In this document: positions 1,701 through 61,311 of the stretch, one piece after another
How the letters are laid out: each line of letters starts with the position of its first letter
Position numbering within the stretch: position 1 is the first letter of the stretch
Assembly: GCA_003994795.1 (NCBI GenBank)
Contig: AP018269.1
Span: forward strand, 3,705,677-3,769,676
Length of the DNA: 64,000 nucleotides
Direction: 5' to 3'
DNA from: Cylindrospermum sp. NIES-4074
Lineage (GTDB): Bacteria > Cyanobacteriota > Cyanobacteriia > Cyanobacteriales > Nostocaceae
Translations under genes and position numbers: made by a program
Notes under the pieces: generated by a model
What the model was told of the DNA's origin: nothing
The model's database searches: none
Seen by the model: only the letters and a program-made list of their open reading frames with translations

Positions 1701-2984
1701 CGCTTGTTTTCTACAGTTGCTAAAAGCCGGAAAATTCGCATATAAGAGAGATGAAGATTAAGTAGGCAACGTAAAAAGTATTTCTTTACAGAAGTATTGC
1801 GTAACTAAATCAGACGATTTAGTAGTCTATGAAACTTAATAACCCCAAAAGTAATTTTTAAGAGTACGGTAGGGCACATCGGAATTTATGCTTGGCAGGT
1901 ATTGGGTTGGGTAGGCAGCGCGGTGGACGGGTTGCCCGGCATAAGGCGACTGCCGTCGGCGGAGCCGACTTAAAGCAAGTGCCGTGAAAAATATGCTTTT
2001 ACTTTGGCTGGGTAAGTCCTGTTAAAGTAAGCGACTTTGTAGAACCAAAAATCCCCTGATTAGAAATCAGGAGAGTGTCAAATCTGTAAGCATTCAGCTT
2101 GTAGCTTTAAGCAATCTTAAAGTATTTATGAGCATTCTAACTGCTGATTACTATACTTTTGGTGTAAGTCTCCCCAATTCAAAACCCTTAAACTCAGTCT
2201 AAAACTTGTTTTTAGCCGATTTACTTCGGCGTGAGGCTCCGACGGTAAGCTCAGTCGAACGCTAACGGCTGATAGCTGAATGCTTACTCAAATCTCCATA
2301 TAGGACATCAATCAACTAGCCATAATTAATGATAAGCACCAATGAATGCTAGATTTCTGGTAAATTTCTCATATCCAAAACAACTTAAGTAATTCTGTTA
2401 AATAGATAACAAAAATACCTGATCTAAACATACTTTTTCTGCATAATTTTAGCTATGAGTAGCTGGAATAGTTGAGTTGAAAATAAGGTTTACACCTATG
2501 AGCATCAGCCGCTAAAAAGGATCTTCCATCTTGGGAAAACTCCCGCCAAGTGTCTGCGATCACAAGCTTGTCAAGTGTATTCTCATCCTTGCTGCAAACT
2601 CAAAAACAGTCCGGATATCATACTGCTATACTTGGAGAAATTATTATGGTCAACCCGTTTTTGCTGATTATTAGACTTAACTCTCCTCCAGAAAAATGTC
2701 TAGTCTGGAAATATTCAAACCTGTTGTATTGGGATTGGTAGCTAAACTGACCAACAATCATTGAAGAGTGCGATAGTTTTAAGAAATGTGGGAATATTTC
2801 CTGCTGCCGATACTTCCATTATTAGCTATGGAATGGTAACAGATTCGTTTTGGTTATTGCTGTTAGGATATGATTCTGCTACCTAGAAAGTAAAATTATA
2901 TTTAGTCACTAAATATATTGACTTCTTCTCATTACAATAAAGACCTTAATTTTATATTTCACGCATCAAGGAGAAACATTGAAT
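1701..2984. other. 1.28-kb spacer with a MITE and short hairpins; no convincing gene
   Basis: The stretch contains a 202-bp MITE (2086-2287, listed separately), a small hairpin CCTGATT-AGA-AATCAGG at about 2055-2071, and AT-rich sequence. A 63-codon GTG-initiated frame at 2550-2741 lacks a ribosome-binding site, a recognisable motif and coding-like composition, so I do not call it. AAGGAG at 2968-2973 belongs to the next gene. Confidence 0.6.
2086..2287 (+). mobile_element. MITE, GTAAGC-type (copy A) with 8-bp target duplication
   Basis: A 202-bp non-coding element with perfect 13-bp terminal inverted repeats, GTAAGCATTCAGC at 2086-2098 and GCTGAATGCTTAC at 2275-2287. It is flanked by identical 8-bp sequences TCAAATCT at 2078-2085 and 2288-2295, a target-site duplication. 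The interior is shared with copies at 28812-28987 and 47073-47286: TGAGCATTCT, then TTTGGTGTAAGTCT, then AAACCCTTAAACT. No ORF is present. Ends beginning GTAAGC with 8-bp duplications match what is known of IS66-family elements, so trans-mobilisation by an IS66-type transposase is inferred. Confidence 0.88.
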
Positions 2985-28811: not shown

Positions 28812-28987
28812 GTAAGCATTCAGCCGTCAGCCCTCAGCTATCAGCTTTCCTCCAAGAATTTGTGAGCATTCTGACAGAGGGATTACTAATTGCCTTTGGT
28901 GTAAGTTTACCCAACTGCAAACCCTTAAACTTCAGTCTAAAACCCGGTTTTACCTGACTGCTGACCGCTGAAGTGCTGAATGCTTAC
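28812..28987 (+). mobile_element. MITE, GTAAGC-type (copy B) with 8-bp target duplication
   Basis: A 176-bp element with the same 13-bp ends as copy A: GTAAGCATTCAGC at 28812-28824 and GCTGAATGCTTAC at 28975-28987. It is flanked by perfect direct repeats CATAATTT at 28804-28811 and 28988-28995. It has the internal blocks GAGCATTCTGACAGAGGGATT, TTTGGTGTAAGTTTACCCAA and AAACCCTTAAACTTCAG, but is shorter in the right half. It is non-coding. Confidence 0.9.
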
Positions 28988-31282: not shown

Positions 31283-31326
31283 AGAGCATTCTGACTATCC
31301 TTTTAAGGTTTTAGCTGACTGCTTAC
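31283..31326 (+). mobile_element. relic of a GTAAGC-type MITE
   Basis: GAGCATTCTGACTAT followed within 20 bp by TTTTAGCTGACTGCTTAC. The last 13 bases (31314-31326) match the right terminal repeat GCTGAATGCTTAC at 12 of 13 positions, and GAGCATTCTGA matches the element interior. The left end is missing. Confidence 0.5.
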
Positions 31327-42672: not shown

Positions 42673-42910
42673 GTTTCAATCCCTAATAGGGATTTTGGAA
42701 AGTTGTAACCATTTTTAACACCAATATATCATTCTGAAATTTCGTTCCAATCCCTAATAGGGATTTTGGGAAGTTGTAACTCCCCTAAGAATAGGGTACA
42801 GATTTATATAATGGGGTTTCAATCCCTAATAGGGATTTTGGGAAGTTGTAACACCAAACAAAAGCCACCCTCCAAGGATTTGTATGTTTCAATCCCTACT
42901 AGTTTTTTGC
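42673..42910 (+). CRISPR. short CRISPR array: three full repeats plus a degenerate one
   Basis: 37-nt repeats at 42673-42709, 42744-42780 and 42816-42852 (GTTTCAATCCCTAATAGGG through AAGTTGTAAC; the second has GTTCCAAT and the first has TTTGGAAAG). They are separated by spacers of 34 nt (42710-42743), 35 nt (42781-42815) and 33 nt (42853-42885). A truncated, diverged repeat starts at 42886 (GTTTCAATCCCTACTAG), marking the leader-distal end, so the leader would lie on the left. No cas gene exists within the window, so the array is an orphan or depends on Cas proteins encoded elsewhere. Confidence 0.93.
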
Positions 42911-47072: not shown

Positions 47073-47286
47073 GTAAGCATTCAGCACTTCAGCGGTCAGC
47101 AGTCAGCGTTCGACGCTCGCTCACGCCGAAGTCTAAAACTGGGCTTTAAAATGAGTTTAAGGGTTTTGCGTTGGGGAGACTGACGCCAAACGCAATTAGT
47201 AATCCCTGTGTCAGAATGCTCATAAATTCTTTAAGATTGCTGATTGCTGATTGCTGACGGCTGAATGCTGACGGCTGAATGCTTAC
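47073..47286 (-). mobile_element. MITE, GTAAGC-type (copy C), no target duplication
   Basis: A 214-bp element with the same 13-bp ends: GTAAGCATTCAGC at 47073-47085 and GCTGAATGCTTAC at 47274-47286. It is inserted in the opposite orientation to copies A and B. Read on the minus strand it has ATGAGCATTCTGACACAGGG, TTTGGCGTCAGTCTCCCCAA and AAACCCTTAAACTC in the same order as copies A and B. The eight bases on either side (CTTTAGTC, GATGAAAG) are not direct repeats. GCTGATT/GCTGACG units near one end are internally duplicated. Confidence 0.85.
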
Positions 47287-61273: not shown

Positions 61274-61311
61274 GTAAGCATTCAGCTAATAGTTCACTGT
61301 TGAATGCTTAC
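61274..61311 (+). mobile_element. minimal GTAAGC-type MITE ends (38 bp)
   Basis: GTAAGCATTCAGCTAATAG then TTCACTGTTGAATGCTTAC: the two element ends lie almost end to end, giving an 11-bp perfect stem (GTAAGCATTCA / TGAATGCTTAC). It starts 15 bp after the LysRS stop. It lacks a target duplication. It appears to be an internal-deletion derivative and may now act as a terminator. Confidence 0.7.

What the first reader, a model, noticed from the sequence alone, without database searches (positions are those of the whole stretch)
2078..2295. IS66-type MITE copy A with perfect 8-bp target duplication
A 202-bp non-coding unit has 13-bp perfect inverted ends starting GTAAGC and is flanked by TCAAATCT on both sides. 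IS66-family ISs are known for GTAA-type ends and 8-bp duplications, so a trans-mobilised MITE family is the simplest explanation. Together with copies B and C it defines a family that, as far as I know, is not a standard annotation class.
Basis: partly seen in the sequence, partly recalled or inferred. Interest (0 to 1): 0.72.

Follow-up and report, generated by a model that had tools for sequence, protein, structure and literature searches.

The report
IS66-type MITE family in a cyanobacterium
A 202-base stretch of non-coding DNA is one copy of a small parasitic mobile element that has spread through this cyanobacterial genome and must borrow the cutting enzyme of a larger element, probably of the IS66 family; it is a clear and well-marked case of a known kind of mobile DNA.

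Summary
Window 2086-2287 is a 202-bp unit with 14-bp perfect inverted ends (GTAAGCATTCAGCT), flanked by TCAAATCT at 2078-2085 and 2288-2295. The genome holds 144 exact 13-base ends, against 0 for the reversed pattern. Of 56 paired elements catalogued, 35 have a perfect 8-bp duplication; no pair has a flush repeat of another length from 4 to 12. One copy lies inside an older copy of its own family, and joining its flanks restores the uninterrupted sequence. So this is a MITE family that duplicates 8 bp on insertion. The IS66 assignment is well supported but not closed. The resident IS66 (7 copies, 8-bp duplications) matches 11 of 13 end bases, IS66 remnants in two relatives match 12 of 13 at one end, and none of 177 IS66 loci ends in the exact MITE sequence. 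A second, 4-copy MITE family here carries exactly the resident IS66 ends, so the larger family's own helper was probably a sister IS66, absent or not found. New family of a known kind; ordinary in mechanism.

The parts
2078..2085 (.). left copy of the 8-bp target duplication, TCAAATCT
   Evidence: sequence
2086..2287 (+). MITE copy A, 202 bp, 14-bp perfect terminal inverted repeats GTAAGCATTCAGCT
2288..2295 (.). right copy of the 8-bp target duplication, TCAAATCT
   Evidence: sequence
28812..28987 (+). MITE copy B, 176 bp, duplication CATAATTT 8 of 8; 99% identical to copies at C1:282261 and C1:1419751
47073..47286 (-). MITE copy C, 214 bp, exact ends on both sides, no target duplication (2 of 8)
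61274..61311 (.). 38-bp unit made of the two ends only (one end with 1 mismatch), no target duplication
31284..31326 (.). probable degraded fragment: internal GAGCATTCTGAC motif and one end with 1 mismatch
   Evidence: read by eye; end

Best explanation
Copy A is a non-autonomous miniature transposon (MITE). A transposase supplied in trans binds the GTAAGCATTCAGC ends, excises or copies the unit, and joins it to a target cut with an 8-base stagger; gap repair leaves the 8-bp direct repeat. The transposase most likely belongs to the IS66 family, as does the resident 1,547-bp single-ORF IS. The cognate IS66 is probably a sister element with GTAAGC..GC ends that is lost or was not found; the resident IS66 could be the helper only if it tolerates two end changes. 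Shown: ends, 8-bp duplication, copy number, absence from sister sites, recreation of the target at two sites. Inferred: the IS66 transposase and the cut-and-join steps.
For: 144 exact ends in the genome, 0 for the reversed pattern. 35 of 56 pairs have a perfect 8-bp duplication, 47 of 56 at least 7 of 8; the most seen in 10,000 shuffles of the flanks is 5 and 7. Flush exact repeats occur at length 8 only, of 4 to 12 tested. The element at C1:4078861 interrupts an older family copy and that at C1:783362 another repeat; joined flanks restore both. Resident IS66: 7 copies, ends GTAAGGATTCAGG found by comparing the copies, 5 of 7 with an 8-bp duplication. A search of 177 IS66 loci that made no demand on the end sequence found an inverted pair with an exact 8-bp flush repeat in 53, and 97 of the 106 ends begin GTAA. 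In the GTAA-restricted scan, 49 of 177 loci gave 98 ends, and the MITE base at each of positions 5-13 occurs in at least one; C at 13 occurs only in a divergent end type (GTAACTGCCTAGC). IS66 remnants in G238 and G210, both rich in MITE ends, show one end GTAAGCATTCAGG, 12 of 13. A 201-bp MITE in the same genome has exactly the resident IS66 ends and 8-bp duplications in 3 of 4 copies.
Against: No IS with exactly these ends was found: 0 of 177 IS66 loci end in GTAAGCATTCAGC (the single exact hit, in L298, lies about 1 kb from a weak match). Among 217 family genomes, 13 of 19 with 5 or more ends have a PF03050 hit against 108 of 198 others, Fisher p 0.33, so co-occurrence gives no support; G032 has 50 ends and no hit. 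MITE copy B and the IS66 share no 10-base word. 9 of 56 pairs have fewer than 7 of 8 matching flank bases. 124 of 177 IS66 loci gave no end pair with duplication (many are fragments or at contig edges), so their ends are unknown.
Confidence: 0.77

Rival explanations
1. The resident IS66 (7 near-identical copies, 490-aa transposase) itself mobilises the family despite two differences in the 13-base end.
For: It is the only IS66 with a PF03050 match in the genome (7 matches, 18 of 18 candidates scored), has 8-bp duplications, and its ends agree at 11 of 13 bases. Some MITE bodies are identical between copies, which suggests recent movement.
Against: Of the 112 ends of the 56 catalogued pairs, 96 are exact, 16 have one mismatch and none is the resident type, although two mismatches were allowed (the stretches were fetched by exact end or by similarity to copy A, which biases this). 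A different 4-copy MITE carries the resident ends exactly. All 27 GTAAGGATTCAGG ends listed in the genome fall to the IS (14), that small MITE (8), one 693-bp unit (2) and three single ends.
Confidence: 0.3
2. The family belongs to another transposase family that also makes 8-bp duplications.
For: Six of the 19 genomes with 5 or more ends have no PF03050 hit: G032, G035, G098, G198, G199, G222.
Against: Ends fit the IS66 pattern closely. An IS66 relative in L303, checked as a candidate, has different ends. Other IS families of this genome were not scanned.
Confidence: 0.17
3. A dispersed structural repeat (hairpin or regulatory RNA element) and not a mobile element.
For: The strand folds somewhat better than shuffles as DNA, z -2.7.
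Against: 8-bp duplications, nested insertion and absence at the corresponding place in genus mates (A and C in G001 and G002, B in G001); no Rfam match at the gathering score.
Confidence: 0.02

Closest known systems
ISAva2 (IS66 family, Trichormus variabilis ATCC 29413), and the resident IS66 of this genome
   Same: 8-bp target duplication; ends GTAAGGATTCAGGT agree with the MITE at 11 of 13 bases. The resident transposase is 66% identical to that of ISAva2.
   Different: Autonomous, about 1.5 kb with one transposase gene; no 10-base word shared with MITE copy B (checked for the resident IS); C, not G, at end positions 6 and 13 in the MITE.
The 201-bp MITE with GTAAGGATTCAGGT ends in this genome
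   Same: Small, multi-copy, IS66-type ends, 8-bp duplication in 3 of 4 copies.
   Different: Ends identical to the resident IS66; 4 identical copies; no 10-base word shared with copy B.
MITEs of Anabaena sp. 90 (PMC3542288, passages read)
   Different: Their end sequences are not in the passages read, so relationship is untested.
Nezha (cyanobacterial MITE)
   Same: Cyanobacterial MITE.
   Different: Seen only as a title in a reference list; ends not compared.

Membership tests
MITE | short, non-coding, terminal inverted repeats | tested here: met
   202 bp, 14-bp perfect ends, no listed ORF of 80 aa or more
MITE | multiple copies | tested here: met
   144 exact ends; 56 pairs catalogued from 62 fetched stretches, which do not cover all 144
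MITE | target site duplication of fixed length | tested here: met
   35 of 56 pairs perfect at 8 bp, no other length from 4 to 12
MITE | mobilised by a transposase in trans | not testable with these tools
   needs an assay; identical bodies at different sites suggest recent movement
IS66 family (as helper) | 8-bp target duplication | tested here: met
   MITE. IS66 elements. PMC3281130 lists ISPpa5a and ISPpa7 (IS66) with an 8 in what I take to be the duplication column; the column heading was not seen (passages)
IS66 family (as helper) | ends beginning GTAA and fitting the family end pattern | tested here: met
   97 of 106 IS66 ends found without regard to sequence begin GTAA; MITE bases 5-13 each occur among 10 distinct GTAA ends, C at 13 only in a divergent type. 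The GTAA rule as such is recalled
IS66 family (as helper) | an autonomous element with the same ends | tested here: not met
   best matches 11 of 13 in this genome and 12 of 13 at one end in relatives; 0 exact among 177 IS66 loci

The most novel reading that the evidence does not exclude
An orphan end-type, GTAAGCATTCAGC, is shared by MITE families in many genera of this cyanobacterial family with partly different bodies, while no autonomous element with these ends is left: the ends would outlive their IS66 helper and be kept moving by relaxed recognition by whichever IS66 arrives. The copies also reassort arms, body and a nested repeat, so the family would evolve by recombination between copies as well as by transposition.
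Probability: 0.2. Interest if true: 0.5.

Novelty: new member of a known kind. Interest (0 to 1): 0.3.

Why it matters
It adds a well-documented IS66-type MITE family, and a second smaller one, to a genome whose resident IS66 has an open transposase frame. Two MITE families with ends 2 bases apart beside one IS66 make transposase end-specificity in this family directly testable. The end 13-mer is also a simple annotation handle: 19 of 217 genomes of the host's family hold 5 or more.

Tried and rejected
Larger spans between ends were looked at as possible autonomous partners: G016:C1:207969-209901, G032:C1:950242-951198 and 4224383-4227410, and three single ends in the own genome (810896, 1014739, 2654573). 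In the first three, nearer imperfect ends pair with most of the exact ones; I read the first two by eye and only scanned the third for ends; no gene search was run on these three. For 810896 and 1014739 the ORF lists (120 aa or more) showed no gene I recognised as a transposase; for 2654573 ORFs were not listed. No partner end with a matching duplication was found for these three singles.

An IS66 relative of 566 aa (L303, G096) was considered as partner and rejected: its ends are GTATCGGCTCAATA with an 8-bp repeat.

MITE copy B was not found in plasmids or phages (distant mode). The exact end string is in no paper of the library. Searches combining cyanobacteri or Nostoc with MITE and IS66 or related words showed no report of an IS66-type MITE in cyanobacteria among the titles, abstract beginnings and passages seen (passages). 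Wolk et al. 2010 on Anabaena PCC 7120 insertion sequences is not held, so an earlier description there cannot be excluded.

Global alignment of the sister intergenic stretches is noisy because they are diverged; it shows absence, not the base-exact empty site. Copy B could be compared only with G001: its left flank had no match in the G002 list.

I lowered the main confidence from 0.80 to 0.77 and raised the other-family rival from 0.15 to 0.17, as most IS66 loci gave no ends at all.

Full report
What is there. The window lies in a 7.7-Mb, five-contig genome. Its name was not given; the nearest IS66 and plasmid matches are in Nostoc, Calothrix, Trichormus and similar cyanobacteria, so I take the host to be a member of the Nostocaceae. 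At 2086-2287 there is a 202-bp unit, with TCAAATCT on both sides at 2078-2085 and 2288-2295. The outer 14 bases are perfect inverted repeats. It lies between a 530-aa ORF ending at 1700 and a 93-aa ORF starting at 2979, and no listed ORF of 80 aa or more overlaps it.

Copy number. The exact 13-base end occurs 76 times forward and 68 times reverse in the genome; the pattern read backwards occurs 0 times. I catalogued 56 inverted pairs (ends within 2 mismatches, starting GTAA, less than 700 bp apart) in 62 stretches totalling 224,157 bases. The listing of ends stops at 100 of 144, and not every listed end was fetched, so the catalogue is a sample. Of its 112 ends, 96 are exact and 16 have one mismatch. 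20 of 56 elements are 165-176 bp and 17 are 259-267 bp long. One search left 13 exact ends unpaired; one (2684302) lies inside a catalogued pair, and of the other 12, 6 have a partner with 1-3 mismatches and an 8 of 8 duplication (L073, L002, L007, L003, L023, L015), one has 7 of 8 (L084), and 5 have no partner with a matching duplication.

Target duplication. Of the 56 pairs, 35 have identical 8-mers on both sides and 47 match at 7 or more bases; shuffling the right flanks 10,000 times gave at most 5 and 7, self-pairings included. Exact repeats flush with the ends occur at length 8 in 35 pairs and at no other length from 4 to 12. The 35 perfect 8-mers are 73% A+T. The nine pairs below 7 of 8 include window copy C (2 of 8) and the 38-bp ends-only unit at 61274-61311 (2 of 8).

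Insertion into a known sequence. The element at C1:4078861-4079126 lies inside an older, degraded copy of the same family: the joined flanks, with one GAATTTAT kept, read through the family sequence and align to many other catalogued copies across the junction. The element at C1:783362 lies in another repeat, of which two uninterrupted stretches (85-86% identical) were in the fetched sequence. In genus mate G001 all three window copies are missing between the aligned flanks: for A the two aligned pieces abut; for B the gap is about 120 bp against 382 in the window; for C about 60 bp against 234. In G002, A and C are missing likewise (for C 76 bp against 251; for A the gap is 927 bp against 1,164 and copy A finds no match there), and B could not be compared. 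G001 has 4 exact ends and G002 none.

Which transposase. The genome has seven PF03050 (IS66 DDE) matches, all of one IS, 1,547 bp with one 490-aa ORF. Its ends, found by comparing the copies, are GTAAGGATTCAGG(T), and 5 of 7 copies have an 8-bp duplication. The MITE end differs at positions 6 and 13. To see how IS66 ends vary I examined 177 loci brought in by IS66 searches (some overlap). Without regard to end sequence, 53 have an inverted pair 1.0-2.8 kb apart (at least 11 of 13) with an exact 8-bp flush repeat, and 97 of their 106 ends begin GTAA. In the GTAA-restricted scan 49 loci gave 98 ends; the commonest is GTAAGGATTCAGG (58), and the MITE base at each of positions 5-13 is present in at least one of 10 distinct ends, C at 13 only in the divergent GTAACTGCCTAGC. 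ISAva2 of Trichormus variabilis shows GTAAGGATTCAGGT ends and an 8-bp duplication GAATCCAG. IS66 remnants in G238 and G210 have one end GTAAGCATTCAGG, one base from the MITE; their other ends were not found. No IS66 locus ends in the exact MITE sequence.

A built-in comparison. The genome holds a second MITE, 201 bp in four identical copies, whose 14-base ends are exactly those of the resident IS66 and which shares no further 12-base word with it; 3 of 4 copies have an 8-bp duplication. This shows that MITEs with IS66 ends occur here, and makes it less likely that the larger family, with different bases at two positions, depends on the same IS.

Distribution. Of 217 genomes of the family, 105 have at least one exact end. 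19 have 5 or more, up to 57 outside the own genome; the other 86 have one to four, above the reversed-pattern control, which hits 20 genomes once each. Relatives of copy B over all or nearly all its length, at 67-80% identity, occur in G223, G205, G199, G222, G093, G096, G098 and G091; elsewhere only parts, often the ends, match (which scored 3 candidates per genome). PF03050 is found in 13 of the 19 rich genomes and 108 of the other 198 (p 0.33). This test does not support the IS66 link and does not exclude it, since helpers can be lost.

Mosaic structure. In the 38 of 56 elements with a delimitable 71-79-bp body, median pairwise identity is 0.81, but some bodies are identical while the left arm, the right arm or a nested repeat of about 90 bp differs. 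A 17-base word of that repeat is held by 22 of 56 elements. Exchange between copies, by gene conversion or similar, is the simple reading; it was not tested further.

Effect on genes. Of the 40 elements with at least 400 bp of flank on both sides, 3 overlap an ORF of 120 aa or more and 1 of these (C1:851862) appears to interrupt one. The other 37 are clear of such ORFs by this crude measure.

Verdict. A real MITE family with 8-bp duplications; IS66-type by ends, duplication length and a parallel case in the same genome; exact helper not found. I found no earlier report in the papers searched, but the main Anabaena PCC 7120 study was not held.

Noticed in passing
G000:C1:1007249-1007449, 3359557-3359757, 3695711-3695911, C2:53912-54112: Second MITE family, 201 bp, four identical copies, ends identical to the resident IS66 over 14 bases; 3 of 4 with 8-bp duplication.
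   Followed up: partly
inside 22 of 56 catalogued elements, e.g. G000:C1:6460520-6460786: A nested GC-rich repeat of about 90 bp (contains CTGCGGAACGCTACGCG) present or absent in elements with otherwise identical bodies; resembles cyanobacterial small dispersed repeats (recalled).
   Followed up: partly
G000:C1:4078861-4079126: MITE inserted into an older copy of its own family.
   Followed up: yes
window 1903-1984: Another dispersed repeat next to copy A, with matches at several places in the two genus mates.
   Followed up: no
window 42673-42852, minus strand: Three CRISPR-DR5 repeat matches in Rfam.
   Followed up: no
G000:C3:211962-212654: 693-bp unit with resident-type IS66 ends, no matching duplication, that by eye may be a deletion derivative of another IS66.
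   Followed up: no
G016 (relative): 47 PF03050 matches, many of the listed ones with stop codons inside, and 47 exact MITE ends in one 5.5-Mb genome.
   Followed up: no
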